A stretch of DNA of 64,000 nucleotides from Legionella hackeliae (GTDB lineage: Bacteria; Pseudomonadota; Gammaproteobacteria; Legionellales; Legionellaceae), in assembly GCF_000953655.1 (NCBI RefSeq), contig NZ_LN681225.1, positions 822,001 to 886,000 of the forward strand. Reading direction: 5' to 3'. The notes beneath the pieces were generated by a model. It was not told where the DNA came from. It saw only the letters and a program-made list of their open reading frames with translations, and did no database searches. Below, one piece after another: positions 7,367-54,943 of the stretch (position 1 is the stretch's first letter; each line of letters starts with the position of its first letter). The translations under genes and the position numbers were made by a program.

Positions 7367-7443
7367 GGTTTAGTCGCTATTCTCAAAGAGTGACAACTTC
7401 ATTAAATAGCACGCGTGTTTACAACAAGGCTTACTACACGCTT

Positions 7444-7564: not shown

Positions 7565-7645
7565 CGTGGGATATCAAGCAGTAGGACGTGGGATATCAAG
7601 CAGTAGGACTTGGGATATCAGGTAGTAGGATATGGATACCAAGCC
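7563..7645 (+). repeat. 22-bp tandem repeat, second block
   Basis: Three consecutive 22-base units beginning GACGTGGGATATCAAGCAGT at 7563, 7585 and 7607 (the third with a few changes), then a partial fourth copy. The sequence differs from the first 22-bp block but has the same period. Copy number is probably variable between strains. Confidence 0.8.
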
Positions 7646-7702
7646 GGAGACATTGGTATGAACAAGATGCGAGGCTTATTAAGATAATCAAGAAAAACTA
7701 AT

Positions 7703-7732
7703 GATTTGTCAGATCATTTGATCTGACAAATC
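7703..7732 (-). terminator. Perfect palindrome, probable dksA terminator
   Basis: A 14-bp perfect stem (GATTTGTCAGATCA / TGATCTGACAAATC) with a TT loop. Read on the minus strand, downstream of dksA, it is followed by ATTAGTTTTTCTTG, giving the U-rich tail of a rho-independent terminator. Confidence 0.65.
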
Positions 7733-7765
7733 AGCAAGACAAGACACTAATAGACCAATGAGAAA

Positions 7766-8242
7766 TTAACTACCTTGGTTTTGGCGCTCTTTGATTTCAG
7801 ACAAGGTCTTACAATCAATACACAAAGTTGCAGTCGGTCGAGCTTCCAGGCGTCTTAATCCAATTTCAATGCCACAGGCTTCGCAATAGCCAAAATCCTC
7901 ATCACGTAGACGCTCTAACGCATCTTCGATTTTCTTAATGAGTTTACGCTCTCTATCACGAGTTCTGAGTTCAAGACTAAATTCTTCTTCTTGACTGGCT
8001 CTGTCAGAAGGATCAGGAAAATTAGCCGCTTCATCCTTCATGTGCGTTACTGTCCTGTCAACTTCCTCCATCAGTGATTGGCGCCATGCAAGCAAAATTT
8101 TCTCAATATGAGCAAGTTGCTTGTCATTCATGTACTCTTCGCCATCCGTTTCCTGGTATGGTGCTATTCCCATGTTGCTAACGGCGTCATTTTTCACGTT
8201 TCGTATACTCTCATTGGTTGAATCGATTATTTGTTCTGGCAT
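7766..8242 (-). CDS. dksA: RNA polymerase-binding transcription factor DksA
   Basis: Binds the RNA polymerase secondary channel and, with ppGpp, sets stringent control; in Legionella it belongs to the stationary-phase and transmissive switch. Visible are the coiled-coil tip motif DPSDRA, the run [21 protein letters not shown], and the C4 zinc finger CEAC...CIDC. Length 158 fits the family (E. coli 151). An in-frame TTG lies one codon upstream, but the ATG at 8242 has a strong AGGAGG five bases ahead. A good terminator follows. Confidence 0.96.
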
Positions 8243-8329
8243 CAATGCCTCCTGCTATTGCATCCTCTCGTCATGCCACTGTGGCACACGATCGAAAACC
8301 GCTAGGTATATCAAAAATCGTGCTGGTCA

Positions 8330-9175
8330 TCAACAAATTATTCGTTTACCACCCGTCACACGGTCATTACCTTGCCAATCTTGCCAACATTGAATCTCTG
8401 TATACCCATACTCATTAAGCATAGACGTTACCGCAGATTTTTGATCAAAACCATGCTCTAATAATAACAGCCCGCCTGGCTTAAGCCTAGCAATACTATG
8501 TTTAATAATATGTTTTAATGCATATAGTCCATCTTCTCCACTCACTAGAGCCAACTGGGGTTCAAAGCGAACATCACCTTCAACAAGGTGGGGATCATTG
8601 GTAGCTATGTAGGGGGGATTGGCCACAATGGCATCGAAAAGTTGATGAGGTGTTATATTCTCAAACCAATCGGAGTGATAAAAATAAACGTTCGATAATG
8701 CTAATCTTGCCGCATTTTCTTCCGCAGTTTGCAAGGCACCTGGGCTGCAATCGCAAGCTGTAATTTTCCATTGTGGTTTTTCTGAGGCACAAGCCAAGGC
8801 AATAGCACCACTACCAGTTCCCAAATCAAGAATTTGTGCCTGTTTATTGTCGGCCAACAATGTTAGAGTAAGTTCAACTAAAAGTTCAGTTTCTGGTCGC
8901 GGTATTAAAGTGTCTTCACATACCTTTAAAGGTAAAGACCAGAATTCTCGTGTTCCCGTCAAGTAGGCAATAGGCACGCCCTCCAGTCGTCTGGCAATTA
9001 AACGTTGAAAGCTTTGCCACTGAACTTGCGTTAGTGTTGCTTCAGGGTATGCATAAAGATAGCTTCGATTTCTTATTAAAACATGAGCAAGCAGGATTTC
9101 GGCATCCAGACGGGCACTGCTACTGCATTGTGCTAATTGTATGGATGCTTGTTCCAAGGCTTGCTTAATCTCCAT
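8330..9175 (-). CDS. prmC: Peptide chain release factor N5-glutamine methyltransferase PrmC
   Basis: SAM-dependent enzyme that methylates the GGQ glutamine of release factors RF1 and RF2. Visible are the N-terminal helical substrate-binding part ([11 protein letters not shown]), [12 protein letters not shown], the SAM loop [12 protein letters not shown], and the catalytic NPPY in VANPPYI. The frame is open up to 9232, but the ATG at 9175 matches the family N-terminus. It then overlaps the end of prfA by 11 bases, giving 281 residues (E. coli 277). Co-transcription with its substrate gene prfA is the usual arrangement. Confidence 0.94.
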
Positions 9176-10259
9176 CATATTGTCCGAGTTCAGCAAGCAA
9201 TTCGGCATGATGTTCGCGCTGTAAAGCATCAATGACGGGCGACAAATGACCTTCCATTACATCTGTAAGTTGGTATAACGTGAGATTAATTCGATGATCT
9301 GTAAGTCGTCCTTGAGGAAAATTATAAGTACGTATTCTCTCCGAACGATCCCCCGTCCCGACCAGCGATTTTCGCGTGTCAGCTTGTTGTTGGCGCTGTT
9401 TGCTTTGTTCAGCATCTAACAGTCTTGTTTTTAATAGGGCCATGGCTTTAGCGCGATTTTTGTGCTGGGAACGCTCATCCTGACATTCAACAACCACACC
9501 TGTTGGTATATGAGTAATACGAATAGCCGAGTCAGTTTTATTAACGTGCTGACCGCCAGCACCAGAGGAGCGATAAGTATCAACACGTATTTCGTCTGGG
9601 TTAATTTCGATATTATCGATTTCTTCCACTTCGGGTAAAATTGCAACGGTACAAGCAGAAGTATGAACACGACCCTGAGATTCCGTCTCAGGAACTCGTT
9701 GTACGCGATGTGCGCCTGATTCAAATTTTAATTGCGAATAAACGGATTGCCCCGTAATCCGCGCAATAATTTCTTTATAACCACCATGTTCTCCATGGCT
9801 GGCGCTAATAATTTCGACTTGCCATCCTTGAGTTTCAGCATAGCGATGATACATACGGAATAAATCACCGGCAAAAATTGCCGCTTCATCACCACCGGTT
9901 CCCGCACGAACTTCAAGGTAGACATTACAAGTATCATCTGGATCTTTAGGAATCAAATGCCACTGGAGTTCATCTTCCAATTTTTCGACATCTTCTCTCG
10001 CGTTAGCAATTTCCTCGTCTGCCATAGCGGCTAATTCTTTATCACCACCGGCCAGCATTTCTTGCAAGGAACTGACATTGTCACGTGCTTTGATGTAGGC
10101 ATTATAGCAGTTGGCTATCGGCTCCAGCTGGGCATATTCTTTTGATAAATTCTTAAACTGATTTTGATCAGCAATAACAGAGGCTTCAGAAAGTAAACGA
10201 CTCACTTCTTGAAACCGCTCAAGCATTTGCTCAAGTTTTAATTCAAGCGATTTTTTCAT
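9165..10259 (-). CDS. prfA: Peptide chain release factor 1
   Basis: Class I release factor reading UAA and UAG and triggering peptidyl-tRNA hydrolysis. The GGQ motif lies in [15 protein letters not shown], and the codon-recognition P-x-T is PET in [16 protein letters not shown]. Length 364 compares with 360 in E. coli. Its ATG overlaps the hemA stop in an ATGA junction (10256-10259), and prmC starts inside its end, so hemA-prfA-prmC are translationally coupled. Confidence 0.97.
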
Positions 10260-11518
10260 ATGGAAACTGGATCACTAGATGGATTAAATAAGTATTGTGC
10301 TAAATCAAGTAATTCCTCACGGCCATCCCAGGCAGCTTGACGTAATCCAACAGTGGGATGATGTGTTAATTTATTGACTAAGCGCTCGCAAAATTCATGC
10401 AGTACCATAGTTTGATTATAGCCTGCTGAAAGTTTATCCTGGGCTCGCTGTAATTCTTTCTGCGCTAAGTCTTGCATGTAACTGCGGTAGTCACAGATCA
10501 CATTCTTTGCTCGTAAAGAACGGTGCCAACGGATAAAATTGTCAAGTTCACTCTCAATTAGTTGCTCAGCCTGAAGGGCTGCCTCACGTCGTTCATCCAT
10601 TCCTTTTTCAATAAGCAGTTGCAAATCATCGATATTATAAAGATGAACGGCATTTAATTCGGCCACATTCGCTTCGATATCACGAGGAACTGCCAAATCG
10701 AGGAAGAACATGGGCGCATGTGCTCGCTTGCTTAAGGCATGCTCAACAAGACTTTTATTGATAAAAGGAAGCGGACAGGCCGTTGCTGAGATAACGACAT
10801 CGGCTTGAGATAGATGTTCAGGAATATCACCAATCGCCAAAGCCTGACCATCAAATATGGCGGCAAGCTGTTTTGCATTTTCAGTTGTACGGCTGGCGAT
10901 TAAAAATTGTCTAACGCCTTGTTTATGCAAATATTTAGCAACCAAGGTGGATGTTTCACCTGAGCCTATAATGAATACTTTCAGGGCGCTGTAATCTGAA
11001 AATAATTTACCAATTAATTGCACTGCAGCATAAGCTATGGAAACAGGATTAGTACCAATGCCACTGCGGCTGCGAATTCGTTTACTCGCGCTGAAAATGT
11101 ATTCAAAGACATGACGTAAATTTGTTTTCACTGCGCCTAACTTACAAGCCTGTTGATAAGCCTGCTTCATCTGACCAAGAATTTGTGGTTCACCAAGCAT
11201 CATTGAATCAAGACCACTCGCTACCCTTAAAGTATGACGTATCCCTTGAGGGCCATGATGCATATAAAGGTAGGGAGAGAGTAGTTCGGGAGCAAGTTGA
11301 TGTTGCTTCGCAAGCCATGGAGCTAAGCTTTCGGGGTCTTCTGTATCGCAATAAATCTCCGTGCGGTTACAAGTCGACAAAATAGCGGCTTCATTCACTG
11401 CAGGTAAATCAATGAGATTATGAAGCAAAGCCTCTTGCATAGACAAAGGCAGAGCGACTTTTTCACGCACGTCTAATGGAGCAGTTTTATGATTTAGGCC
11501 GCAGGCAACAAACACCAT
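10256..11518 (-). CDS. hemA: Glutamyl-tRNA reductase
   Basis: NADPH-dependent first enzyme of C5 tetrapyrrole synthesis, converting glutamyl-tRNA to glutamate-1-semialdehyde. The catalytic cysteine is in [10 protein letters not shown]. The NADPH domain shows [17 protein letters not shown], and the C-terminal helical dimerisation domain is present. The frame opens four codons earlier with a TTG, but starting at the ATG at 11518 puts the cysteine at residue 50 as in E. coli and gives 420 residues (E. coli 418). It is the first gene of the hemA-prfA-prmC set. Confidence 0.95.
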
Positions 11519-11713
11519 AGATTTTTTCAAAATGGCAGCAGAATAATCTTGGAATTGTAAACTATTAGCGTCGGAATTTACAGACTTTGTACCGATGAAA
11601 AAGAATACGAAAGTAAACTAATTGTTCTTAAAAAGCTCAAGTCCTTTTATTTTTAGCCGCTAACATGAATAGGGCACGTTGTTCAGGAACGCTCTCCTGA
11701 TAAGGGAATGCAG

Positions 11714-11998
11714 ATGGATATCATTTTCCAAGGCCAGCATAATAGTGAAGAGGCTGCTGAAAGTTTATTAACAGTCCTGAGATTATTTAAAGAACGTTAT
11801 AATATTGGCCAATTTCGCGAAATGCATCTTACAGTAACATTGGTTGATGAGAGTGGTGATGAGGTGGAGCTTGTGGATAGCGAAACATCTCGAACTTATC
11901 GTACCTTTGAGGTTTATAGAAAAGGTTATGAACTTGGAGGACGACGAGGCGAGCCTTTGCTACATCTCGTTGTTGATAATACAAAAATAAAGAAGTGA
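11714..11998 (+). CDS. Conserved hypothetical small protein
   Basis: A 94-residue soluble acidic protein without signal peptide or known catalytic motif; I do not recognise the family. An ATG also occurs at 11708, but TAAGGGA touches it directly. The ATG at 11714 has that Shine-Dalgarno at a normal distance of six bases and is preferred. The gene is followed after eight bases by the M50 protease gene, so the two probably form an operon divergent from hemA. Confidence 0.7.
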   Translation: MDIIFQGQHNSEEAAESLLTVLRLFKERYNIGQFREMHLTVTLVDESGDEVELVDSETSRTYRTFEVYRKGYELGGRRGEPLLHLVVDNTKIKK

Positions 11999-12006
11999 GA
12001 TAATGA

Positions 12007-13074
12007 ATGTTATGGGCCATACTGGCAATACTTCTAACTCTTATTTTGGTTGTAGGTATTCATGAAGCAGGTCATGCGCTTGCTGCACGAATTTTTGGAG
12101 TAAAAATTCAGAAAATTTCTATTGGTTTTGGTAAACCGTTAGTCTCATGGAAAACCAAATCTAATCAAGAGTGGGTATGGGCTTTATGGCCCCTTGGAGG
12201 CTATGTTCAATTACTCAATTCCCGTATTCAGCCTGTTCCTCCAGAAGAGTTTCCAGTGTGCTTTGATAAAAAACCCATATGGAAACGATGTATTATTTTG
12301 CTTTCAGGTGCACTCGCTAATTTAATCACTGCTTGGTTGGCATTAACGCTACTGTTTTTAATCGGCTATCAACAAACCCCACCACTGGTGCAATCGGTAA
12401 AAGCAGATAGCATTGCAAGCAGTGCGGGTGTTAAACCGGGAGACCGTTTTATTAGTTTAGCTGAGCAAAATGTAAATTCCTGGCAAGAAACAGGGATGAG
12501 GCTTATCATGCTTCTTGGTAAAAAGAATGTCCCTGCAGTGATAATAAATAATCAAGGTCAGTTAAGGTCAGTGAATTTTGATTTCTCCCAGTGGCGATAC
12601 CAAAGAGGGATGTCCTTGCTGCAGAGCTTGGGAATTGAGCCACAAACAGACCTCCCTAAAGAGCAAATAAACGGTGAGTCTATCATTAATGCGTTTTGTC
12701 ACGCTGTAGTTAAGTCTATGCAATTACTTTCTTTTTTCCTGACCATGCTTAAACAGATAGTGACTGGAGTTTTGCCTTTTGCAGTTTTATTAGGCCCTAT
12801 TGGATTATTTTCAGCATCGGTTACTTCTTTTTTCCAGGGTTTCACCGTATTTTTATATTTTATCGCGAATTTAAGTTTGGCGGTCGGTCTTGTGAATTTA
12901 TTCCCCATTCCTGGGTTAGATGGTGGTTTAATTGTCTATGCATTACTCGAAAAAATTCGGGGGAAACCGATTTCAGTGCCCATGGAAATTCTATTCCATC
13001 GTCTGGTTACGATTATTTTTATTGTTTTGCTTGTTCAACTTATTTTAAACGATATAAAGCGTTATCTGCATTAA
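12007..13074 (+). CDS. Site-2-protease-like M50 membrane metalloprotease
   Basis: Intramembrane zinc protease of the RseP family. The first membrane segment carries the zinc site HEAGHALAAR (HExxH, about residue 18). The PDZ domain (about 120-190) includes ASSAGVKPGDRFISL. Further membrane segments lie near 225-300, and the third zinc ligand is in FPIPGLDGG. At 355 residues it has one PDZ domain, whereas E. coli RseP (450) has two. Flanking genes are not the usual dxr/bamA neighbours, so this is probably an accessory M50 protease rather than housekeeping RseP. The substrate is unknown. Confidence 0.88.
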   Translation: MLWAILAILLTLILVVGIHEAGHALAARIFGVKIQKISIGFGKPLVSWKTKSNQEWVWALWPLGGYVQLLNSRIQPVPPEEFPVCFDKKPIWKRCIILLSGALANLITAWLALTLLFLIGYQQTPPLVQSVKADSIASSAGVKPGDRFISLAEQNVNSWQETGMRLIMLLGKKNVPAVIINNQGQLRSVNFDFSQWRYQRGMSLLQSLGIEPQTDLPKEQINGESIINAFCHAVVKSMQLLSFFLTMLKQIVTGVLPFAVLLGPIGLFSASVTSFFQGFTVFLYFIANLSLAVGLVNLFPIPGLDGGLIVYALLEKIRGKPISVPMEILFHRLVTIIFIVLLVQLILNDIKRYLH

Positions 13075-13237
13075 AAGCTAGCCCCAGTCATTATCAATGG
13101 GTCAAGCAATTGCCAAACATGTGATTCTAAAGGCAACTGCATCCACAATCAGGTATGCAACTAATTTTAAAAATGACCAGAATGCTGCTGCTAGTGCAGT
13201 AGTAGGTTGGGTCATTTGAATTAACCAGGTTCTCTTC

Positions 13238-13543
13238 TCATTTTGGCGAATTAAAATTGGTATGTATCGTTTGTTCATCCTGAGTATCTGCCAAGTTCAA
13301 AATAAAGTGGGTAGTCGTTGTTTTGTTTAATGCGTTATAAATTCCGACCGCTACTTTCCCAAAAAAACCATAAGCAATAGGCTGTCTTCGATGAGAACAA
13401 CAAATCTCCCAATTGCTGATGCCATTGGTTGTGTAACTCTTCCATGATTCAATAATTTCACGAATTGGAGTTGTCGAATTTTTGAGCATTCTGGTCGTAA
13501 GATTATCACATATCAAGGTTTCAATAAAAAGTAATTGCATCAT
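13238..13543 (-). CDS. Small hypothetical ORF
   Basis: A 101-residue ORF without recognised family, signal peptide or membrane segment. It contains a cluster of cysteines (WEICCSHRR) and Thr-rich stretches. The start is a double ATG with only a poor purine run ahead. It lies alone between convergent neighbours. It may be a real Legionella-specific gene or a chance ORF; composition does not decide. Confidence 0.35.
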   Translation of the reverse strand: MMQLLFIETLICDNLTTRMLKNSTTPIREIIESWKSYTTNGISNWEICCSHRRQPIAYGFFGKVAVGIYNALNKTTTTHFILNLADTQDEQTIHTNFNSPK

Positions 13544-13692
13544 ATAATTTAAAGCCCTAATAACACATTTAAAATTTTATATTTTTTGATAATACGGTAT
13601 TAAAGCTATACTCGTAGTATTGGAGACTTGGGTCTTTTATATCTCAAAACAACAAACAATTTTGGTGTTTTTTGTTAATCCTTAATTAAAGG

Positions 13693-14358
13693 ATGGAACC
13701 TGTGCTTGATTTTCTTCTTAAAAACAATTGGTTTTCTTTAATGCAAGATATTGGATGCGATAGAGAGATTGCTCAAAAATGGTGGGGAATTTTAAAGCAT
13801 CAATATACTCAAAAAAATCGTTTCTATCACAACTTATCTCACATTGACTATCTAATCACCTTATACACCGATTATTATCGTTTTCTAAAGCTTCCTCATC
13901 TGGTTTTATTAAGCATCTGGTTTCATGATGCTATTTATCAAGCGACTGAGAAAAATAATGAAGAGAAAAGTAATGATTTCTTTTTAGATTTTGCAAAGGA
14001 AAGCCACTTAGATAACGAAGATACTCACCGAATTTCTAATTTTATCTTGGCTACCAAAACACATTTGGTTGATTCATCGTTGCAAGATGAGAATGATTTG
14101 TTATTTTTTCTTGACTTTGATTTGGCAATTCTTGGTGCGTCTGCAGAAGAATACAAGAACTATGTGCAGCAAATCCGTTTGGAATATAAGCATTTAACGC
14201 TAAAAAAATTTTGTTTGGAAAGAATAGAAGTTTTAAAGAGTTTATTAGCGATGCAGTTATACAAGACTGAAGTACTTCGTGAAAAATATTTAAAAAGTGC
14301 ACGATATAATTTATTAAATGAGCTTAGAGAACTTAATAATCAAATTAACATGTTCTAG
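13693..14358 (+). CDS. HD-domain-type predicted metal-dependent phosphohydrolase
   Basis: Soluble 221-residue protein resembling a family of predicted HD-superfamily phosphohydrolases (COG4339-like). Histidines and aspartates sit in the expected order: YHNLSHIDYL (about 45), IWFHDAIYQ (about 75), and a later acidic DFDLAILG (about 150). The substrate is not known; nucleotides are typical for the superfamily. A purine-rich AAAGG precedes the ATG. It converges with comF, overlapping its last 14 bases. Confidence 0.75.
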   Translation: MEPVLDFLLKNNWFSLMQDIGCDREIAQKWWGILKHQYTQKNRFYHNLSHIDYLITLYTDYYRFLKLPHLVLLSIWFHDAIYQATEKNNEEKSNDFFLDFAKESHLDNEDTHRISNFILATKTHLVDSSLQDENDLLFFLDFDLAILGASAEEYKNYVQQIRLEYKHLTLKKFCLERIEVLKSLLAMQLYKTEVLREKYLKSARYNLLNELRELNNQINMF

Positions 14359-15010
14359 CACAACACCAAATGTCAACTCGCTCCACTCCTTGTCTTTTAA
14401 AAAGCTTTGCTAATTCATTTGCAGTACTGCCTGTAGTTAATAAATCATCTACTAAAGTAATGTGACGATAAGCGTTATTTTTTATTTCAAACGCATGACG
14501 CAAATTATTTCGACGTGCTTTTCCGTTGAGACTGACTTGTGCGGGAGTATGCAATATTTTTTTACACAAATTGAGTTCGCAAGGTATTTTTAATGTTTTT
14601 GCCAAATGTTTGGAGAATTCTGCAGCCTGATTAAATCCTCGTTCACGCAATCTTTGAGGATGCAAAGGGACAGGAATAAGACATTGAGTTTTGGTCTTTT
14701 CAGTGGGTAAGGCAGAGAGAATTAGCTGTACTAAAAACTTTCGTAAATAAAGTGCGCCATTGTATTTGTACTGGTGTAAAAGGGTGCGTAAGGGTTCTTC
14801 AAATTGATACATTACAAAGGCTTTATCAAATGCAGGTTTTACTTTAGCGCACTGACCGCACACTAAAAAATCTTTATCAGGTAGAGGGAATGCGCAGTAT
14901 TGGCAAGCATGACCTAATGGCTGCAATAGAGTCATACAGTTTTTACAAACCGCACAGTTTTCACGATGATACTGAGAACAGATAACACAAGCAGATGGGA
15001 AACGTAACAT
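14345..15010 (-). CDS. comF: ComF/GntX-family phosphoribosyltransferase-like protein
   Basis: Family linked to DNA uptake in competent bacteria; Legionella is naturally competent. An N-terminal zinc-ribbon region contains repeated CxxC pairs (CVIC, CAVCKNC, CQYC, CGQC). It is followed by a type I PRTase domain with LIPVPLHPQRLRERGFNQA and the PRPP loop LVDDLLTTGST. The frame extends to 15145, but that overlaps divergent bioC heavily. An ATG at 15010 gives 221 residues, close to GntX (227); an ATG at 15076 is an alternative. Enzyme activity is unproven in the family. Confidence 0.85.
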   Translation of the reverse strand: MLRFPSACVICSQYHRENCAVCKNCMTLLQPLGHACQYCAFPLPDKDFLVCGQCAKVKPAFDKAFVMYQFEEPLRTLLHQYKYNGALYLRKFLVQLILSALPTEKTKTQCLIPVPLHPQRLRERGFNQAAEFSKHLAKTLKIPCELNLCKKILHTPAQVSLNGKARRNNLRHAFEIKNNAYRHITLVDDLLTTGSTANELAKLFKRQGVERVDIWCCARTC

Positions 15011-15074
15011 GTGTGTTATACTGCTTATTTTGTAGCGCACGAAAGTTGGCTTCCTTGTAATTATTTCCTTTTCC

Positions 15075-15944
15075 ATGATGAATTTGAATTTAGAAATTTG
15101 CAATACATTTAATAAGCATGCTACCGAATACCAACAAGCTGCCAAGATACAACATGAAATTGGCCAGCGATTATTCGAACGCCTTGATTATCTCAAAATT
15201 AATCCTCGTTATATTCTGGATTTAGGTTGTGGGCCTGGATTGTTCTCATTTCATCTTAAAAAGAAATATCCTCAAGCCGAAATTGTCGGTTTGGATTTAG
15301 CCAGAAATATGCTCTTGGAAGCGAAGAAAAAGCAAGGTTGGTGGCGTAATAAATGGCCATTGATTAATGGCGATATGACATCGCTCCCATTTGCAGCTGG
15401 AACCTTTGATTTAGTGTTTGCGAATCAAACGATTCACTGGGCTCAACCTTTATCTTCCGTAATACGAGAATTAAATCGAGTTATGAATGTTAATGGTTGT
15501 TTAATGTTCTCAACATTAGGGCCTGATACATTTAAGGAATTAAAACAAGCATGGCAAGTTGCTGATCAGTATGCGCATACGAACGAATTTGCCGATATGC
15601 ATGACATTGGGGATTGTCTTTTAAAAGAGCGATTTCTAGATCCAGTGGTTGACATGGAATTACTAACTGTACATTATGGTAATTTAAAGAAGTTATTAAT
15701 CAATTTAAAAGCACAGGGCGTACGTAATATTAACTCCAAACGCAATGAAGGCTTAACTGGGAAAGAAGCTTGGCAAGTTTTCGAGGAAGCTTATAAAGCA
15801 TTGTGTACAGTCGAAGGCAAGTATCCGCTCACCTATGAAGTCGTTTATGGGCATGCATGGAAAGGGGAGCAGCGTGTTGTGGGTGATGGAACAGAAACAT
15901 TAATTCCTATTTCTCAAATTCTACGACGTCCTGTTTCAAAATAA
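15075..15944 (+). CDS. bioC: Malonyl-[acyl-carrier protein] O-methyltransferase BioC
   Basis: SAM-dependent methyltransferase that masks malonyl-ACP to start pimeloyl (biotin) synthesis. Class I motifs are ILDLGCGPGLFS (about 48), IVGLDLARNML, FDLVFANQTIHW (about 110, the BioC-type Q-x-I-H-W), and MFSTLGPDTFKEL. Length 289 compares with 251 in E. coli. It stands apart from other bio genes and is divergent from comF with very close or overlapping starts; no clear Shine-Dalgarno is seen. Confidence 0.9.
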   Translation: MMNLNLEICNTFNKHATEYQQAAKIQHEIGQRLFERLDYLKINPRYILDLGCGPGLFSFHLKKKYPQAEIVGLDLARNMLLEAKKKQGWWRNKWPLINGDMTSLPFAAGTFDLVFANQTIHWAQPLSSVIRELNRVMNVNGCLMFSTLGPDTFKELKQAWQVADQYAHTNEFADMHDIGDCLLKERFLDPVVDMELLTVHYGNLKKLLINLKAQGVRNINSKRNEGLTGKEAWQVFEEAYKALCTVEGKYPLTYEVVYGHAWKGEQRVVGDGTETLIPISQILRRPVSK

Positions 15945-16085
15945 TTAAAATTGTAACTTCTTAACTTGTCATTCCAGGCCGGTTTTAGAGGTGTTCAGAA
16001 TGTCAGTTTGTTTTATACTGTCTATCTAAAAGCGCTATAATCTAAATGATCCGGGAATACTATTTTCTAGCATCTAGGAGTTCTT

Positions 16086-16904
16086 ATGGAATTTGTCAGT
16101 CGTTATGTTTCTCATCAACCTGATGCCAAAGGTATGGTTAATTATAGCAGTGAGGAGCATCGCATTTGGCAATTACTTTATGAACGCCAAATGAAAATTA
16201 TTCCTAACAGAGCGTGTAATGAATTTATTCAAGGCGTGGAAAGTCTTGGATTGTCTTCAGAGTGTATTCCTCAATTACCTGAGGTAAGTGGTCGACTTAA
16301 GTCACTAACAGGTTGGGAAGTTGCTCCTGTCGCTGCCTTAATTTCAGCGCGCGAATTTTTTCAATTATTAGCAGAAAGACGTTTTCCAGCCGCTACATTT
16401 ATCCGTTGTGAAGAAGAAATTGATTATGTCCAGGAACCTGATATTTTTCATGAGATTTTCGGCCATTGCCCCATGTTAACTGATCCCGTGTATGCGGATT
16501 TTGTTTGCAATTATGCGCGCAAGGTTTTAAATCTAACGGAGGATAAATGGCCGCTTTTGCAGCGGCTTTTTTGGTTTACTGTGGAGTTTGGTTTAATCAA
16601 AACCTCTGAAGGATTGCGAGCTTATGGAGGTGGTATTTTATCCTCTATCAGTGAGACACCTTATAGTGTTGAAAGTGATATTCCCATGCGTGTGCTGTTT
16701 GACCCTGTTGTTGCCTTTCGCATGCCTTATCGTATTGACATGTTACAACCCGTCTATTTCGTTATTGATAATTACCAAATGCTTTATAATTTTGTCGAAG
16801 CAGATATTATGAAATTTCTTGAGCGGGCAAAAGAATTGGGCGAATACCCACCTTTTTTCGCGGTTGATGAAAATAATCCCAGTATCCATATTTTGGCGTG
16901 TTAG
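16086..16904 (+). CDS. phhA: Phenylalanine-4-hydroxylase
   Basis: Iron- and tetrahydropterin-dependent aromatic amino acid hydroxylase converting phenylalanine to tyrosine. Metal ligands are visible in DIFHEIFGHCPML (two His), with the downstream Glu in the FWFTVEFGL segment. Length 272 is the bacterial single-domain size. In Legionella this enzyme helps growth without tyrosine and contributes to pyomelanin formation. RBS TAGGAG precedes the ATG. The stop codon lies inside a strong inverted repeat. Confidence 0.96.
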   Translation: MEFVSRYVSHQPDAKGMVNYSSEEHRIWQLLYERQMKIIPNRACNEFIQGVESLGLSSECIPQLPEVSGRLKSLTGWEVAPVAALISAREFFQLLAERRFPAATFIRCEEEIDYVQEPDIFHEIFGHCPMLTDPVYADFVCNYARKVLNLTEDKWPLLQRLFWFTVEFGLIKTSEGLRAYGGGILSSISETPYSVESDIPMRVLFDPVVAFRMPYRIDMLQPVYFVIDNYQMLYNFVEADIMKFLERAKELGEYPPFFAVDENNPSIHILAC

Positions 16905-16918
16905 CGCGCCAAAATATG
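16887..16918. terminator. Inverted repeat over the phhA stop codon
   Basis: A 12-bp perfect stem (CATATTTTGGCG / CGCCAAAATATG) encloses the TAG stop. There is no T tract beyond it, so it is either a weak terminator or a 3'-end stabilising hairpin. Confidence 0.5.
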
Positions 16919-17155
16919 AGATTTCCATGCGCTGTTAAACTGTGAATTCTTATTAATCGACTATAATCAGGAATGGACATTATTACTCTTTTCTAATCAT
17001 GCTAAAGAATCAATATGTTGAGAAGTGCTTAGCAAATTAACAGGGAATCACAGTTCCTGAATGATTAAAATCAGTACCAATTGTAATGCCTGATTAGTCT
17101 TGCTAATATCGATGCATGTTTTGTGTTCATTGGCTAAACGTCAAGGAGCCATCGT

Positions 17156-17815
17156 TTGATAAAAGTTCTAATTGTTGATGACCATGCCCTGGTAAGAATG
17201 GGGATTCGACGATTACTTGAGGATCTATCGGATGTTGAAGTAGTTGCTGATGCTGAAAGCGGTGAGCAAGCTTTGACATTGGTAAAATCTCATAAGCCTG
17301 ATGTAGTCTTGCTTGATATGAAAATGCCTGGAATTGATGGCTGGGAAGTGACCAGACGGCTTAAAAAATCTAATCCTCTAGTGAAGGTGATTGCTGTGAC
17401 TGCTGTCTGTGCAGAGCCGATGCCTACTCGCGTTCTTCAATTGGGGGCGATGGGCTATTTAACCAAAGAGTCTGGTGCTGAAGAAATGGCCGCGGCGATT
17501 CGTAAAGTGGCTAGAGGCGAGAAATATTTAAGTGCGGAGATCGCACAAAAAATGGCTATCAATAGCCTTGAAGCAACACAAGACTCTCCTTTTGATCTGC
17601 TTTCAGAACGTGAAATGCAAGTCATGCTAATGATTACCAGCGGTATGACTGTGCAAGATATTGCAGATCGATTATTTCTAAGCTCTAAAACAATTAATGG
17701 CTATCGCTATCGAATGTTTGAAAAATTAGGTATAAAAAACGACGTTGAGCTTACTTTCCTGGCAATGAAACACCGTGTCATTGAACAACCCAATGATGCA
17801 TTACATGATGAATAA
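17156..17815 (+). CDS. letA: LuxR-type response regulator LetA (GacA/UvrY family)
   Basis: Response regulator of the LetA/LetS two-component system. In Legionella it activates the small RNAs RsmY and RsmZ, titrates CsrA and starts the transmissive phase. The receiver domain (1-120) has the acidic pocket VDDH, phospho-acceptor Asp54 in LLDMKMPG, and Lys in YLTKES. The LuxR helix-turn-helix (about 145-210) has LSEREMQVMLMI and SSKTINGYRYR. It starts with TTG, preceded by AAGGAG at 7 bases. Adjacency to uvrC is the conserved gacA/uvrY-uvrC pairing and supports LetA over other LuxR regulators. Confidence 0.92.
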   Translation: MIKVLIVDDHALVRMGIRRLLEDLSDVEVVADAESGEQALTLVKSHKPDVVLLDMKMPGIDGWEVTRRLKKSNPLVKVIAVTAVCAEPMPTRVLQLGAMGYLTKESGAEEMAAAIRKVARGEKYLSAEIAQKMAINSLEATQDSPFDLLSEREMQVMLMITSGMTVQDIADRLFLSSKTINGYRYRMFEKLGIKNDVELTFLAMKHRVIEQPNDALHDE

Positions 17816-18004
17816 TCATTCCTTGGAACAATAAATTTTTACATCAGTTTTATACAATTGGGGTCAGGATGACCCAACAAACATTAGCAAATCCGCATCG
17901 CTATTAAATTAACTTAGAATGAATATTAGAGATTAAAGGAATGGACTATAATAAGTTGTTAATGCCTTGTGATGTCCAATAGAAGTTGTTCGTGATAATT
18001 AATA

Positions 18005-47375: not shown

Positions 47376-48412
47376 AGCCAGGTAAGAAGCGGGAACTGAC
47401 TGTTTCTCTTCAGGATGGCTATCCGATAAGTGTTCGTAGGAGCTGTGAAGTTTTAATCACAGGCCGTAGCGTATTCCAATACAGCTCATCCCGTGGTGAA
47501 GATACTTTTATAAGACACCGTATCAGGGAAATAGCCGAAACAAGAGTTCGTTATCGCTATCAGTGTATTCATGTACTGCTTCAATGAGAAAGCTCGGTCA
47601 TCAATCATAAGAAAGTTCATCGCATTTATTGCGAAGAAGGTCTTAATCTTCAAATGAAGCGACCTCGACGACAGTTAGCTGGTAGTCACATAGAGGAGCG
47701 GTCGCTACCCTCTACTTTAAACGAATGCTGGAGTATGGACTTTGTTTCCGATAACCATGTTTAATGGCAAGAAAATACGGGCATTCACTATAGTGGATAA
47801 TTTTAGTCGCGAATGCCTGGCTATTTATGTAGGACAAAGCTATCCGAGGTGAAGAAGTCATGGGCGTTCTTGAAGGACATAGAGTACTGGAAAACAAACT
47901 GTTGTGAAAATGGTCTTGAGTTTATTTCAAAAATATCGGATAAGTGGGCTTATCTGAATCACGTAACTCTGCATTTCTCAAGGCCTGGAAAACCAACAGA
48001 CAATGCCTTTATTGAGTCATTTAATGGAAGTTTTCGGGATGAGCGCTTGAATAGCCACTGGTTTCTTTCTCTTGACGATGCTAAAAACAAAATTGAAGAA
48101 TGGCGACTGGATTATAATGATTTTCGACCTCATTCTTTACTTAACAATTTGACTCCAAATCAGTTCAAACAGAAGGTGTTAGGTGCCGGTTTTCTAATTA
48201 ATGCTGGATTAATTTTAGGGAGAGGATCAATTTCTGTGGTGGGTGAGAATAGGAGCCCGCTGGTTATACAGGACTTGCTTTTATGGTTTTTGGACTCATG
48301 CTGGGCTGAGCATGTGGCGCCTTACGGCGCCGAACCTCTCCATCGACATGATATCAATTCGGACAAATCTGAGACACCTGGTGATGATTATCTAACGTCA
48401 TTTGGTCTTTAA
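47352..48412 (+). pseudogene. Decayed IS3-family transposase OrfB
   Basis: The DDE transposase half is recognisable but interrupted by several stops and shifts between about 47400 and 47880. The last part is intact, with SRPGKPTDNAFIESFNGSFR and WRLDYNDFRPHSLLNNLTPN (about 47980-48170), the second Asp and the Glu region of the IS3 catalytic core. The frame then continues through sequence unlike a transposase to a stop at 48412. The element cannot move by itself. Confidence 0.85.
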
Positions 48413-50265: not shown

Positions 50266-50715
50266 TTAATCTGAAGTCCTCAAAGGAGTTTTAATATCAA
50301 GGACAACACCGTGTTGATTAGCGATTTCTTTCAGTAAACGGACAGCTCTTTCGAATGTTAAGGTATCAGGAGCATAGGATTCGGGAAAATACTGCCCCAA
50401 TATGTGCCTGGTCTGAGGGGTTTCCAGAATATATCCCATATTCCAATGTTTAAAATGAATGTGATCAATCGGTTCGGAGCCTAAAATTTTGAATTCGCTG
50501 TGTCGTTTATCTTTTTTAATTTTTTGTAGAATTTTTTTTATGTCCTTTTTTTCACCTTCCAGGACCTGAATAAATTGATTTTTTTTGTACAGCAGCAATC
50601 CGTGTATCTGCAGCTCTGAGTTGTTTTTTACCGAGATACGCCATATATGATCAATATCTGACATCGATAGGTGTCCTGCGGTTTTGCTAACATAGATTGT
50701 TCTGATTAGGTTCAT
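50266..50715 (-). CDS. BLUF-domain blue-light sensor
   Basis: FAD-binding blue-light receptor of 149 residues, essentially one BLUF domain (1-100) plus a helical tail. The key residues of the light switch are in place: Tyr8 (RTIYVSK), Asn31/32 (VKNNSEL) and Gln50 (NQFIQVLEGEK), with the FKHWNMGYI segment carrying the Trp and Met near the flavin. It overlaps the PAS/GGDEF/EAL gene by 29 bases and is the last gene of kaiC-kaiB-EAL-BLUF. Short BLUF proteins act by binding a partner; the adjacent EAL enzyme is the obvious candidate, by inference. Confidence 0.9.
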   Translation of the reverse strand: MNLIRTIYVSKTAGHLSMSDIDHIWRISVKNNSELQIHGLLLYKKNQFIQVLEGEKKDIKKILQKIKKDKRHSEFKILGSEPIDHIHFKHWNMGYILETPQTRHILGQYFPESYAPDTLTFERAVRLLKEIANQHGVVLDIKTPLRTSD

Positions 50716-53077
50716 ATTTTAAATTTAGTAGATCAATTTTTTTTTGCAATAATTGGCTGGAATTTACGAGGTCAGCCAGATAAGACTCTCTATTTTGTTG
50801 GGTGATTCTAGCGGTATTGAAAGATTTACATTTTTGGAAAAATTCATCAATCAGTTCCTCTAGTTCCATTTTCACGGTATTCGAGTGTGGCGAAAAGCTG
50901 CTATTTACATAGTGGGCTAAGGAGTTCAGGCTAGACTCTAAGCTTACCATTTCCCTGTGGGAAATTTTTTTAGCTTGAGATAGTGTATTGACTGCCCATA
51001 CAATGAATGATTGGGCGTAAATTAAATCGAGATTTTCCTGGTACACCGACTGCTGTTGCTGCCACTCTGGAGGTGCTTTCCATGATTCCATCCAGCTCTG
51101 AAACTCAGAGACAGGCATAGGCTTTCCTATAAAATATCCCTGCCCTTCGACACATCCAAGCTTCAGGAGCAAGATACCTTTTTCTAGAGAGTCTACTCCC
51201 TCTGCAATAACGCTCTGGTTAAACCGCTTTGCCATGTGAAGAATAGAATCGATAATAGCAATTACTTTGGGGCTGCTGGAAATCTCATTGATAAACGACT
51301 GATCAATTTTTATTGCATCTACTTGCAGTGCTCGAAGATAACTGAGTGACGAGTATCCAGTACCAAAGTCGTCAAGAGATATTCGCAAATCAATTTCATG
51401 AAATTGAGATATAATTTTTCTGACTGATTTAATATCACGAACAGCTGCCGATTCTAGTAACTCAAGCTCAATATTCCTATTTAATCTATTGCCATATTGT
51501 TCCATCTTTGTTTTGATCTCGTTAAAAAAATTCTCTTGTTGAAGCTCATGAGCAGATACGTTGATGCTTATCCTTAAATCAATACCTTGTTTTAACCACT
51601 CTTCCAGCTGATTAAAAACCTCATCAAAAATAAGCGATGATAGACGATTCATTACCTCATTATTCTCAACATAGGGTAAAAAATATTCTGGATAACACAA
51701 GCCTTTTTGTGGGTGATGCCAACGTATCAGAGCCTCGGCCCCTAAGATTTCTCCAGTCTTCATGTTTACCTTGGGTTGGTAGAATACAGCGAACTCATTG
51801 GCGTTAATTCCATGAGTGACCTCACTTATGATATGGTATCGGTATTTTTGCTCTATGACTTCATCAATGTTATATTCTGTGGCTTGACTGCCTCCTTTTA
51901 TTTTGGATTCAATCATGGCAGCTTCTGCCTGGCGAAGAACTTGACCTGAGGAGGTGTTCTCTTCTAATGGGTATATGACATATCCTAGACTGCAGGAAAT
52001 ATAGATATCATTTTTTTTGATTCTGATCTTTTTGTTGATGGTTTTCATCAGTTTTTCAAAAAAAATATGAGCCGATTTTTCGGCATGATATTGGTTAACC
52101 AATATTACAAAGGTATTGCCTGAGACACGAGCAACCAACCCTTGCTCACCAATAAAACGCTTCATGTTTTTCCCGAATTTTTTAAGAACTATATCCCCAA
52201 TGTGGGTGTCAAACTGCTTGTTTATATCTTGAAATCGGTCAATGTCAACGTATGCAAGAGAAAAGGGGGTTCCGGATGTTTTGTAGTGTTTAATGGATAT
52301 TTCCAGCTCTGCGGTGATGTAATTTATATTATAAAGATTGGTAAGGGGGTCAAAATGTGCCAAATATCTCAATTCTTGCTCTTGTTTCTTGATAATCGAT
52401 ATATCATGCAACAAACCGACATAAAACACTGTCTCATTATTGACATTTTTTATGGAGCTAATCGTTAGGACTATTGGAACCAGTTTGCCGTCCTTTCTTT
52501 TGTCCCAAAGTTCACCCTGCCAACTACCGTTTTTCTTGAGACAACTGAACATATGCTGATAAAACTCTGGCGGCTGCATGCCTGATTTTATCAAACTGAC
52601 GTTTTTGCCGATGGCTTCTTCTTTTTTATAGCCAAAAGTGTGTTCAAAACCCGTATTTACATCAATCATTCGACCATCAATGTCGGTAATGATGATGCCT
52701 TCACAGGAGGAGCTGAATACTCTTGCTGCAACTTCGAGTTCTGATTCCTTGTGTTTTCTCTCAGTAATGTCCTGCAGGGTAATAATCCAGGATTTTCTAT
52801 CGAGCCAGAACCCTTGATTTATATGTATTTCAGCAATGGTGACGCTCTGGTCTGGATGGATGATTTCAATTTCGGTATCTTCATTCTTGCTTAGTGTAAA
52901 CCCAAAGGGACTACCTATGAGTTCCTGGCAGTTTCGCTGGAAGATTTCGGCAGCTCTGACGTTAATATAACGTATCACACTCTCATTGTCGGTTATGATG
53001 ACACCAACTTGCAGTGCGTTGACCAGTGCCGCCCAGCCTTTAAGTGTCTTTTCCTCGTTGAGATTCATGCTATTCAC
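50687..53077 (-). CDS. PAS-PAS-GGDEF(degenerate)-EAL c-di-GMP phosphodiesterase
   Basis: A 796-residue signalling protein. PAS domains lie at about 12-105 and 112-228 (second: EGIIITDIDGRMIDVNTGF and a QDITERK-type end). The GGDEF domain (about 235-400) has SGNTF in place of GGDEF, so it should not make c-di-GMP. The EAL domain (about 412-660) keeps E448-A-L, INVSA, LDDFGTGYSS, IKIDQSFI and AEGV, so it should hydrolyse c-di-GMP. A helical tail of about 130 residues follows. There are no membrane segments. It overlaps kaiB by 8 bases and the BLUF gene by 29, so the genes are tightly coupled. Confidence 0.92.
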   Translation of the reverse strand: MNSMNLNEEKTLKGWAALVNALQVGVIITDNESVIRYINVRAAEIFQRNCQELIGSPFGFTLSKNEDTEIEIIHPDQSVTIAEIHINQGFWLDRKSWIITLQDITERKHKESELEVAARVFSSSCEGIIITDIDGRMIDVNTGFEHTFGYKKEEAIGKNVSLIKSGMQPPEFYQHMFSCLKKNGSWQGELWDKRKDGKLVPIVLTISSIKNVNNETVFYVGLLHDISIIKKQEQELRYLAHFDPLTNLYNINYITAELEISIKHYKTSGTPFSLAYVDIDRFQDINKQFDTHIGDIVLKKFGKNMKRFIGEQGLVARVSGNTFVILVNQYHAEKSAHIFFEKLMKTINKKIRIKKNDIYISCSLGYVIYPLEENTSSGQVLRQAEAAMIESKIKGGSQATEYNIDEVIEQKYRYHIISEVTHGINANEFAVFYQPKVNMKTGEILGAEALIRWHHPQKGLCYPEYFLPYVENNEVMNRLSSLIFDEVFNQLEEWLKQGIDLRISINVSAHELQQENFFNEIKTKMEQYGNRLNRNIELELLESAAVRDIKSVRKIISQFHEIDLRISLDDFGTGYSSLSYLRALQVDAIKIDQSFINEISSSPKVIAIIDSILHMAKRFNQSVIAEGVDSLEKGILLLKLGCVEGQGYFIGKPMPVSEFQSWMESWKAPPEWQQQQSVYQENLDLIYAQSFIVWAVNTLSQAKKISHREMVSLESSLNSLAHYVNSSFSPHSNTVKMELEELIDEFFQKCKSFNTARITQQNRESYLADLVNSSQLLQKKIDLLNLKYEPNQNNLC

Positions 53078-53372
53078 CAGTTATAGACAGTTCCCTGTAA
53101 ATGCTCGCTAAATCGGACAAGTTGCCAATGATCCTTTTTTCGATATTGTTTGTTTCAATAATAAGCGCAGGTGTTGCCAAAATTTTGTTTTTTTCAGCCA
53201 ACTCAATTTTCTTGTCTATTTCAATTACTGCCAGTCGATATTTTGCTTTAAATGATTTTTCCCTAGAAATTTTTCTCACGACTTTAACTGCACCAATTGA
53301 GAGAGGCGACTTGCTGTGGATATAAAGTGTAACTTGACGTTTCTCCTGTACCAGTGTCATAAAGTGCCTCAT
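53070..53372 (-). CDS. kaiB: KaiB-family protein
   Basis: A 100-residue thioredoxin-fold protein of the KaiB family. The characteristic start of the fold is VTLYIHSKSPLSIGAVKVV, followed by YRLAVIEIDKK and the LATPALIIE turn containing the cis-Pro region. In cyanobacteria KaiB binds KaiC during the dephosphorylation phase. It overlaps the kaiC stop by four bases and the EAL gene by eight. No kaiA is present. In L. pneumophila a kaiBC locus is linked to stress fitness rather than a clock. It could also be a KaiB-like stress protein, but kaiC next door makes KaiB most likely. Confidence 0.9.
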   Translation of the reverse strand: MRHFMTLVQEKRQVTLYIHSKSPLSIGAVKVVRKISREKSFKAKYRLAVIEIDKKIELAEKNKILATPALIIETNNIEKRIIGNLSDLASIYRELSITGE

Positions 53373-54943
53373 TCCCTCGATTTCTGATAAGCATTTTTTT
53401 GGCTTACTTGTAATTTGATCTCTTCTTGCAATATTTGTCTTTTCATCTGAAGGGCTTTGATATCCTCAGCAATTTTTCTCTCCTCGACACGCATCTCGGT
53501 CTCGATCATTTTGTCCTTCATTTCGAGAATGGCTTTTTTGGAGCCAAACACTATTTTATTTTCGCTTACGTACGGATCGAGTAGTTCGATGCCGGTAGCA
53601 CTTAATTTCATCTCTTTTACTTCATGAGATTGCGGCAAACCACGAGCCTTAATTACATGGAGAGCCCTGTAAAACTCTCCGTCCTCCTCAACTAGACGAA
53701 GACGAATCCATACATCGGTCAAGCTTGAAATACTGAGATAACTTTTATCATCAGAATAATCGGGTATAAGTTCTGTAAACAAAGCCATCATGCGGCGTTC
53801 TTTAACGTAGCTGGTGAATCGTAACAGCAGTTTTTTAACGAATCGGCTATCACCAATGTCCATCAATGCGGTTATGGGATCAATGACAATCATATCAATT
53901 TTGTTTTCTTCGATAAAATCGATAGTGGTTAAAATATGCTCCTCCAGGCCTTGCTCAACAGAGCGATGGGATCGCAGGAACAGCTTTTGGCATTCTACAT
54001 GCTTTGTCAGATTGATACCGCAACTCGCTGTATGTCGAATGAGATCTCCTGGTGACTCTTCAAACGACATGAAACATACGTTTAGACCATTTTCACAGGC
54101 CGATTCGGCAATCTTCGCCGCTAAGGACGTTTTTGCAGTGCCTGCTCGGCCACTGATAATTATGGTGGCCTCGAGAGGAAGGCCGCGTCCTCCCAAGAGC
54201 TGATCCAGCTTTTTGACCCCGCTAGACATGTAACTAACCGTAGAATCATATTTTAAATTAGAACTGGTTATAGGTAACAACGATATCCCTTTGTTGTTGA
54301 TACTAAAGGGGTATACATCAGTTCCATGTTGCGATCCTCTATATTTTAAAACCCTTAAAAAGCGGGTCATTATGGTCTCTTTTACGACTTGCTTTAATTC
54401 AATGACGCAATCAACATAGAATCGGGCAACCAATTCATCCTTGTCTAACAAGCCTTCACCTAATGTTGCCACAAGAGTGAGATCATTTGTTCTGGCATAC
54501 TCGAAAAGCTGGAGAATCTCATGGCTTGGATTGTAATTCGTTGTACCCAATTGAATAGACTGTATCGAGTCCACAACTATACTTTTGATTTTATGCTTTT
54601 TTATCAAGTTTGATGCGCGCTCTATCAGAAGCATCATATCAAAATTACCTGATACTTCCTGATCAACCTGGCTTCCTGCATCGATAAAAAATAATTGATC
54701 CAATGAGGGTGTTTCCGTCTTGTTATACAACGAATTCATATTGGCAATTAAGTCGCTGGGTTTTTCATCCATGCAGATATAGAGTAGGGGTTCCGACTGT
54801 AATAGTAGGTTTCGGGCGTACAAAAGGGTCATTATTGTTTTTCCCGTACCAGAATCACCCGTAATAAGCGTAGGTCTTCCTGCTGGATAGCCACCATAAA
54901 GAACGTCATCTAATCCTTTGATTCCGGTTGATTCCTTGACCAT
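53369..54943 (-). CDS. kaiC: KaiC-family double-domain ATPase
   Basis: RecA-like ATPase/kinase with two KaiC domains. CI (1-235) has Walker A GDSGTGKT at 29-36, Asp59-Glu60 and Walker B VVDS. CII (236-460) has Walker A GRAGTAKT at 265-272, the catalytic pair Glu295-Glu296 (FEESPGD) and Walker B VIDP. The segment aligned with the cyanobacterial Ser431-Thr432 autophosphorylation sites reads ISSLTD, giving Ser406-Ser407, as in KaiC2-type proteins. A C-terminal coiled coil (about 470-524) replaces the KaiA-binding tail. It heads the operon with kaiB, the EAL gene and the BLUF gene. Confidence 0.93.
   Translation of the reverse strand: MVKESTGIKGLDDVLYGGYPAGRPTLITGDSGTGKTIMTLLYARNLLLQSEPLLYICMDEKPSDLIANMNSLYNKTETPSLDQLFFIDAGSQVDQEVSGNFDMMLLIERASNLIKKHKIKSIVVDSIQSIQLGTTNYNPSHEILQLFEYARTNDLTLVATLGEGLLDKDELVARFYVDCVIELKQVVKETIMTRFLRVLKYRGSQHGTDVYPFSINNKGISLLPITSSNLKYDSTVSYMSSGVKKLDQLLGGRGLPLEATIIISGRAGTAKTSLAAKIAESACENGLNVCFMSFEESPGDLIRHTASCGINLTKHVECQKLFLRSHRSVEQGLEEHILTTIDFIEENKIDMIVIDPITALMDIGDSRFVKKLLLRFTSYVKERRMMALFTELIPDYSDDKSYLSISSLTDVWIRLRLVEEDGEFYRALHVIKARGLPQSHEVKEMKLSATGIELLDPYVSENKIVFGSKKAILEMKDKMIETEMRVEERKIAEDIKALQMKRQILQEEIKLQVSQKNAYQKSRE

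What the first reader, a model, noticed from the sequence alone, without database searches (positions are those of the whole stretch)
50266..54943. kaiC-kaiB-(PAS/GGDEF/EAL)-BLUF: a light sensor and c-di-GMP hydrolase wired into a Kai operon
Four minus-strand genes overlap end to end (4, 8 and 29 bases): a KaiC ATPase, KaiB, a PAS-PAS-degenerate GGDEF-intact EAL protein and a short BLUF protein with Tyr8, Asn31/32 and Gln50 in place. There is no kaiA. Known families: KaiB/KaiC form a phosphorylation timer in cyanobacteria; short BLUF proteins switch partner EAL enzymes. Inference: blue light could control the EAL enzyme through the BLUF protein, while KaiC/KaiB supply energy or stress input. 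A kai locus is known in L. pneumophila, so the novelty lies in the coupling, not the presence of the genes.
Basis: partly seen in the sequence, partly recalled or inferred. Interest (0 to 1): 0.72.

Follow-up and report, generated by a model that had tools for sequence, protein, structure and literature searches.

The report
Kai operon with a light sensor
In one Legionella genome a clock-like KaiC–KaiB gene pair and the c-di-GMP-degrading enzyme gene that often follows it are joined by a small blue-light-sensor gene, which suggests, but does not yet show, that light controls the enzyme there.

Summary
In detail: four tightly packed minus-strand genes, kaiC, kaiB, PAS-PAS-degenerate GGDEF-intact EAL, and a short BLUF with its photoactive residues; no KaiA match in the genome. 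The first three genes are not new as a set: kaiC-kaiB-PAS/GGDEF/EAL recurs in Legionellaceae (10 unbroken in-line copies among 30 other KaiB loci), and kaiC-kaiB followed by GGDEF/EAL genes was in print by 2011. The BLUF gene is the unusual part. In overlapping samples of 143 Legionellaceae, 369 Gammaproteobacteria and 398 Pseudomonadota genomes, 5, 7 and 10 hold both KaiB and BLUF; only this one has them adjacent. Best reading: a new variant of the Kai–c-di-GMP cassette in which a PapB-like BLUF gives blue-light input to the EAL enzyme. Protein contact and light effect are inferred. The four-gene order rests on one genome.

The parts
53369..54943 (-). kaiC: double RecA-like ATPase; Walker A at residues 29 (GDSGTGKT) and 265 (GRAGTAKT), Glu60, Glu295/296, Ser406-Ser407 at the phosphosite position, C-terminal extension
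   Evidence: nearest solved chain R. sphaeroides KaiC 8dba, 3.5e-78; Ser406-407 align with the two residues changed to Glu in 8fwi (S413E/S414E)
53070..53372 (-). kaiB, divergent; keeps P68 but lacks prolines at positions 75 and 77
   Evidence: AF2 model in thioredoxin-like, fold-switched order, pLDDT 80.5; best PDB matches include 5jwr_B and L. pneumophila KaiB 4kun_B
50687..53077 (-). PAS-PAS-GGDEF-EAL protein (GTG 53077 or ATG 53068 start)
52400..53026 (-). tandem PAS region of the EAL protein (second PAS, about 52400-52723, well scored; first weaker)
51890..52360 (-). degenerate GGDEF domain (SGNTF in place of GG[DE]EF)
51119..51820 (-). EAL phosphodiesterase domain with its signature residues
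50690..51103 (-). C-terminal tail at the place of the CZB-like zinc domain of relatives; none of the four zinc ligands, no Pfam CZB hit
50266..50715 (-). short BLUF protein, 149 aa, overlapping the end of the EAL gene by 29 bases

Best explanation
This is a lineage-specific variant of the Legionellaceae Kai–c-di-GMP cassette. The output is an EAL phosphodiesterase (its cyclase half is degenerate). In relatives with the long enzyme the inputs appear to be PAS domains, a C-terminal CZB-like zinc domain and the neighbouring KaiC/KaiB pair. Here the zinc site is gone, and a short BLUF photoreceptor encoded at the end of the same gene row would bind the EAL protein and change its activity in blue light, as PapB does to PapA. 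KaiC/KaiB, without KaiA, would add an energy-state signal. SHOWN from sequence: gene content, tight packing, active-site and photoactive residues present, zinc ligands and two KaiB prolines absent, no BLUF beside the other kai loci examined. INFERRED: co-transcription, flavin binding, BLUF–EAL contact, direction of the light effect, any contact of KaiB/KaiC with the enzyme.
For: Same-strand packing with a 29-base EAL/BLUF overlap. EAL and BLUF key residues present although the proteins sit on long branches (EAL protein 1.85, KaiC 1.48, BLUF 0.96 changes per site), and the window keeps 60 of 72 EAL-protein, 83 of 105 KaiC and 16 of 18 BLUF columns that are invariant in the other aligned rows; unconstrained sequence would hardly do so (inference). 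Precedent for a short BLUF acting on a separate EAL protein: PapB–PapA (PMC8846402, passages). Independent BLUF/EAL tandems elsewhere: L143 (GGDEF-EAL then BLUF, 15-base gap) and L086 (BLUF then EAL, 12-base gap). The Kai–EAL link recurs in 10 unbroken in-line copies among 30 other KaiB loci and in four MAG loci titled only as gammaproteobacteria (L109, L111, L117, L121).
Against: Only one genome has the four-gene order. Short BLUF beside EAL on one strand is rare: 2 of 53 loci examined, plus one convergent pair on opposite strands, L127. The four nearest BLUF relatives (L088-L091) have no EAL neighbour and sit among heme-synthesis genes. Promoter- and terminator-like sites are not above shuffled expectation. 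The window is the least conserved row in each of four alignments, KaiB most of all (12 of 17 invariant columns kept). The tail's CZB ancestry is not confirmed by its model.
Confidence: 0.5

Rival explanations
1. Neighbour without partnership: the BLUF gene landed behind a Kai–EAL cassette and acts on another target, or on nothing; the Kai–EAL unit works as in other Legionella.
For: BLUF is beside no other kai locus examined; its nearest relatives stand elsewhere without EAL.
Against: 29-base overlap with the EAL gene; a described BLUF–EAL pairing elsewhere (PMC8846402); BLUF residues kept.
Confidence: 0.3
2. Decay: the whole locus is losing function (long branches, lost zinc ligands, lost KaiB prolines).
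For: Window end branches are the longest in the KaiC and EAL trees; 4 of 4 zinc ligands and 2 of 3 KaiB prolines absent; five relatives have short, split or broken copies (L056, L057, L060, L072, L077).
Against: Four full-length frames; EAL, KaiC and BLUF key residues present; the 22 changes at otherwise invariant KaiC columns look mostly conservative by eye; the degenerate GGDEF is shared by the six aligned long-tail relatives.
Confidence: 0.12
3. BLUF acts on KaiB/KaiC, as an input to the timer, rather than on the EAL enzyme.
For: Same gene row; KaiB lacks two prolines that make the fold switch slow in R. sphaeroides KaiB (PMC11551320), so another control might have replaced it. A light–KaiC link in non-photosynthetic bacteria has been proposed for myxobacteria, with bacteriophytochromes (PMC11832031, passages).
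Against: No BLUF–Kai contact came up: of seven papers holding both words passages were read in two, and neither shows one.
Confidence: 0.08

Closest known systems
Legionella kai cassette kaiC-kaiB-PAS/GGDEF/EAL, as in L079 (its KaiB is very like L. pneumophila Lpp1115, PDB 4kun, by eye)
   Same: Order of the first three genes; KaiC in one clade with the long-partner KaiCs (98/95); degenerate GGDEF and C-terminal tail on the EAL protein
   Different: Adds a BLUF gene; zinc ligands of the tail and two KaiB prolines absent; 42% KaiC and 28% EAL-protein identity to L079. The L. pneumophila operon itself was not looked at by name
PapB–PapA of Rhodopseudomonas palustris (short BLUF plus EAL protein)
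   Same: Stand-alone short BLUF paired with an EAL phosphodiesterase
   Different: PapA is described as a solo EAL protein (PMC8846402, passages); here the EAL protein also has PAS-PAS, a degenerate GGDEF and a tail, and lies in a Kai operon
KaiBC system of Rhodobacter sphaeroides
   Same: KaiB and KaiC without KaiA; KaiC closest by sequence (3.5e-78), two serines at the phosphosites, C-terminal extension (PMC10076222)
   Different: Divergent KaiB without two fold-switch prolines; EAL and BLUF genes in the row
BlrP1-type BLUF-EAL fusion
   Same: Blue-light sensor with an EAL domain
   Different: One fused protein; here two. BLUF similarity to BlrP1 is weak (5.9e-5 and 3.6e-4)
CZB zinc domain (DgcZ type; EAL-containing CZB proteins are known, PMC8262984)
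   Same: Five of six relatives' tails given to Pfam score as CZB, one above the cut-off; ligands His/Cys/His/His kept in relatives
   Different: The window tail has none of the four ligands and no CZB hit

Membership tests
KaiBC system without KaiA | KaiC with two ATPase domains, Walker A motifs and two adjacent phosphorylatable residues | tested here: met
KaiBC system without KaiA | KaiB that switches fold slowly | tested here: inconclusive
   Sequence proxy only: window P-N-I at the three proline positions, 36 of 37 other KaiBs P-P-P (L084 left out, its frame is too short). AF2 gives the fold-switched order, without a control run
KaiBC system without KaiA | KaiA absent | tested here: met
   whole genome, one profile; the control rang in Synechococcus elongatus
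KaiBC system without KaiA | Autophosphorylation or timed ATPase activity | not testable with these tools
   Needs biochemistry; referred
BLUF photoreceptor | BLUF domain over Pfam cut-off with photoactive Tyr and Gln and the Asn near the flavin | tested here: met
   95.5 bits, cut-off 25; Y8, N31, N32, Q50, W91, M93 (roles recalled)
BLUF photoreceptor | Flavin binding and photocycle | not testable with these tools
   -
PapB–PapA type BLUF–EAL pair | Short BLUF and an EAL protein with catalytic residues present, as separate proteins | tested here: met
PapB–PapA type BLUF–EAL pair | Complex formation and blue-light change of phosphodiesterase activity | not testable with these tools
CZB zinc sensor | 3 His/1 Cys zinc site in a four-helix bundle | tested here: not met
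   None of the four ligands in the window tail, no Pfam hit; model helical, pLDDT 68.8, no PDB match at E<=0.001
Active diguanylate cyclase | GG[DE]EF motif | tested here: not met
   SGNTF

The most novel reading that the evidence does not exclude
Sensor replacement inside a Kai operon: the EAL enzyme's zinc/oxidant-sensing CZB tail lost its metal site and became a docking surface for a newly acquired blue-light receptor, while KaiB lost its slow fold switch, so that an energy- or time-gated c-di-GMP enzyme was rewired into a light-gated one in a non-photosynthetic bacterium.
Probability: 0.15. Interest if true: 0.78.

Novelty: new variant of a known kind. Interest (0 to 1): 0.5.

Why it matters
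What KaiBC systems outside cyanobacteria take in and put out is little understood. A cassette whose output is a c-di-GMP phosphodiesterase and one variant of which carries a photoreceptor gives a concrete, testable input-output pair. Loss of the CZB metal site together with gain of a BLUF gene would, if linked, be a natural case of swapping one sensory input for another on the same enzyme. That the long-enzyme form of the cassette ends in a CZB-like zinc domain is itself a lead to what the ordinary Kai–EAL unit senses.

Tried and rejected
Conservation of the four-gene order: rejected for the genomes held. Genomes with both KaiB and BLUF: 5 of 143 Legionellaceae (G000, G012, G091, G126, G128), 7 of 369 Gammaproteobacteria, 10 of 398 Pseudomonadota (three of these looked up again because the list was cut); the samples overlap. 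Nearest misses: G091 (a BLUF-PAS-GGDEF protein about 8.5 kb from kaiC and 10 kb from kaiB, with a photolyase gene between), G760 about 22 kb, G389 about 23 kb. In the rest the two lie on different contigs or hundreds of kilobases apart; draft genomes could hide a link at contig ends.

A scan of named genomes with the EAL protein found nothing. Short BLUF beside EAL as a general rule: rejected, 2 of 53 loci (13 Legionellaceae loci and 40 of the class-level BLUF places, not all of these). CZB fold of the window tail by structure: not confirmed. Insertion-site synteny: uninformative, only the bestrophin-like gene is shared at DNA level with four genus mates. Foreign origin by G+C: no sign, genes 36.6-41.1% against 39.2% for the window. 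Promoter/terminator scan: not above shuffles. The EAL tree does not resolve the window's place (60/33), so I do not place this EAL protein inside the long-tail clade; KaiC is placed with it (98/95). The AF2 KaiB model had no control with all prolines. Species not named: its second contig partly matches Legionella plasmids, and a genus mate (G011) shares its contig length with L. maceachernii.

Papers: PMC8846402, PMC5520375, PMC11551320, PMC10808063, PMC3164672, PMC6627678, PMC8262984 and PMC11832031 were seen as passages found by term; PMC10076222 as abstract, start of text and passages; others only in search listings. The L. pneumophila kai paper (Loza-Correa 2014) was not held; what is said of it comes from papers that cite it and the title of PDB 4kun.

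Full report
OBSERVATION. Four minus-strand ORFs lie head to tail at 50266-54943. Pfam names them KaiC, KaiB, PAS/GGDEF/EAL and BLUF. The stated overlaps of 4, 8 and 29 bases follow the mechanical starts; the first two depend on start choice, the third does not in practice. The EAL signature residues and BLUF Tyr8, Asn31/32, Gln50, Trp91 and Met93 are present, and the GGDEF motif is SGNTF (roles recalled). No KaiA match in the genome. The genome is a Legionella: part of its second contig matches Legionella plasmids, and a genus mate, G011, shares its contig length with L. maceachernii.

HOW COMMON IS IT. KaiB is in 30 of 143 Legionellaceae genomes (31 places) and BLUF in 18 of 143. I fetched the surroundings of the 30 KaiB places outside the window. 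By phmmer with the window's proteins and ORF order: 10 have unbroken kaiC-kaiB-PAS/GGDEF/EAL in line (L058, L059, L061, L062, L068, L073, L074, L076, L079, L085); 5 have it in short, split or broken form (L056, L057, L060, L072, L077); in 3 kaiC was not found or is cut off by a contig end (L063, L081, L083); 6 have a KaiC of another kind with KaiB, five with a divergently read GGDEF/EAL gene (L064, L067, L069, L070, L075) and one where none was found, part of that locus being masked (L071); 6 have a KaiB-domain gene without a KaiC found, mostly with a receiver-like gene (by eye) and a GGDEF/EAL gene (L065, L066, L078, L080, L082, L084). Surroundings differ from copy to copy by eye, as for a moving cassette (inference). 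The three-gene row also occurs in four MAG loci titled only as gammaproteobacteria (L109, L111, L117, L121). That kaiC-kaiB clusters are mostly followed by a histidine kinase or GGDEF/EAL gene was published in 2011 (PMC3164672), so this part is known.

THE BLUF LINK IS FOUND ONLY HERE. None of the 30 other loci has BLUF beside kai. Genomes with both families: 5 of 143, 7 of 369 and 10 of 398 in three overlapping samples; only the window genome has them adjacent. The nearest miss is G091, where a BLUF-PAS-GGDEF gene lies about 8.5 kb from kaiC; then about 22 kb (G760) and 23 kb (G389). Of 16 named loci found with the KaiC alignment (8 of them probably the same contigs as above) none carries BLUF in the stretch held. 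The window BLUF groups with four Legionellaceae short BLUFs (98/88 in a tree of 60 rows), at 32-34% identity; these lie between hemA- and hemJ-like genes, not beside EAL (Pfam run for L088 only). So BLUF may have come from within the family's own short BLUFs or a related source (inference).

WHAT ELSE CHANGED. The long EAL partners end in a tail of about 140 residues. Of six relatives' tails given to Pfam five score as CZB: L073 6.9e-7 (30.0 bits, above the 29.4 cut-off), and L085 1.2e-5, L074 1.8e-4, L068 4.2e-4, L079 1.3e-3 (below it); L083 and the window have no CZB hit. In an alignment of 14 tails the first His and the Cys are kept in 13 of 13 relatives, and HxxxH in 11 of the 12 that reach that far (L083 has Tyr last; L072 ends early); the window has none of the four. 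In L109, L111, L117 and L121 the first His is followed by Trp three places on, the feature reported for diguanylate-cyclase CZB domains (PMC8262984), which supports the CZB reading. The window tail as modelled is helical but of low confidence, with no PDB match at E<=0.001, so its descent from CZB rests on position and alignment (12-19% identity to seven other tails).

KaiB: of three prolines whose isomerisation limits the fold switch (P58, P65, P67 of R. sphaeroides KaiB; conserved in 474 of 487 KaiBs, PMC11551320), the window keeps the first only. Of 37 other KaiBs aligned (29 Legionellaceae, 8 from other named loci; L084 left out because its frame is short) 36 keep all three, L066 being the exception. 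The AF2 model has the thioredoxin-like, fold-switched order and matches fold-switched KaiBs and 4kun. L. pneumophila KaiB was crystallised in that state too (PMC5520375, PMC10808063, passages), and L079, very like it, keeps the prolines, so the state alone is not special; the proline loss is. In R. sphaeroides KaiB, single changes of P58 or P65 removed the fold-switched state; the same authors suggest that P65 and P67 evolved later, adding the ability to toggle. The two statements point different ways for this KaiB; either way it probably does not toggle normally (inference).

CONSTRAINT OR DECAY. Window branches are long: KaiC 1.48, EAL protein 1.85, BLUF 0.96 changes per site. The window keeps 83 of 105 KaiC (79%), 60 of 72 EAL-protein (83%), 12 of 17 KaiB (71%) and 16 of 18 BLUF (89%) columns that are invariant in the other rows; other rows tested the same way keep 85-100%, and the window is lowest in each alignment. 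Active-site and photoactive residues are nonetheless present. I read this as fast change with the cores under selection; KaiB is the weakest link, and decay stays a rival.

MECHANISM. Best reading: BLUF binds the EAL protein and sets its phosphodiesterase activity by blue light, as PapB does with PapA (PMC8846402). Two other short BLUF/EAL tandems turned up in 53 loci (L143, L086): rare, but independent. KaiC resembles R. sphaeroides KaiC, which works with KaiB alone, has a C-terminal coiled coil, and whose clock is driven by the ATP/ADP ratio (PMC10076222); so KaiBC could report energy state. How KaiBC would reach the EAL protein is not known to me for any member of the cassette; the recurring linkage suggests that it does. 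All contacts are inferred.

NOVELTY. Papers holding both KaiC and BLUF: seven; passages read in two show no such operon, the rest were seen in the listing only. CZB with KaiC: two, unrelated by title. KaiC, KaiB and c-di-GMP: four, one on c-di-GMP and cyanobacterial rhythm (listing only). BLUF with Legionella: 20 listed of 22; Legionella with photoreceptor and blue light: 8 listed of 32; no title listed there concerns this operon. A light–KaiC link in non-photosynthetic bacteria has been raised for myxobacteria, with phytochromes (PMC11832031, passages). The library lacks most subscription journals. I rate this a new variant of a known kind.

Noticed in passing
L088-L091 (unnamed Legionellaceae genomes G131, G134, G132, G127): A short BLUF gene lies between a hemA-like and a hemJ-like gene, with a hemB-like gene beyond (Pfam for L088: GlutR_N 1.6e-35, UPF0093 2.1e-47, ALAD 9.5e-141; the others by eye). 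A possible link between blue light and porphyrin synthesis.
   Followed up: partly
L060 (G091), 3458-17991: A kai cassette (its PAS/EAL gene in two frames) with a photolyase gene and a BLUF-PAS-GGDEF protein gene about 8.5 kb from kaiC: a looser co-occurrence of Kai and light genes.
   Followed up: partly
L065, L066, L080, L082 (also L078, without a detected EAL): KaiB-domain gene without a KaiC found, next to a receiver-like gene (by eye) and a GGDEF/EAL gene: another Kai-like input to c-di-GMP enzymes.
   Followed up: no
L064, L067, L069, L070, L075: A separate KaiC clade (100/100) with KaiB and a divergently read GGDEF/EAL gene of 772-1034 aa.
   Followed up: no
L077/L108 (L. londiniensis), L072, L060, L056, L057: Kai–EAL cassettes with short, interrupted or split genes; unrelated ORFs lie inside the PAS/EAL gene of L072. 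Loss of the cassette may be frequent.
   Followed up: no
L109, L110, L111 (MAGs titled as symbionts of Ctena and Stewartia): Two KaiB-like genes flank KaiC (kaiB-kaiC-kaiB), followed in L109 and L111 by a PAS/GGDEF/EAL gene with a CZB-like tail.
   Followed up: no
window 47813-48412: Transposase-like integrase core (rve_3 4e-27) downstream of the operon.
   Followed up: no
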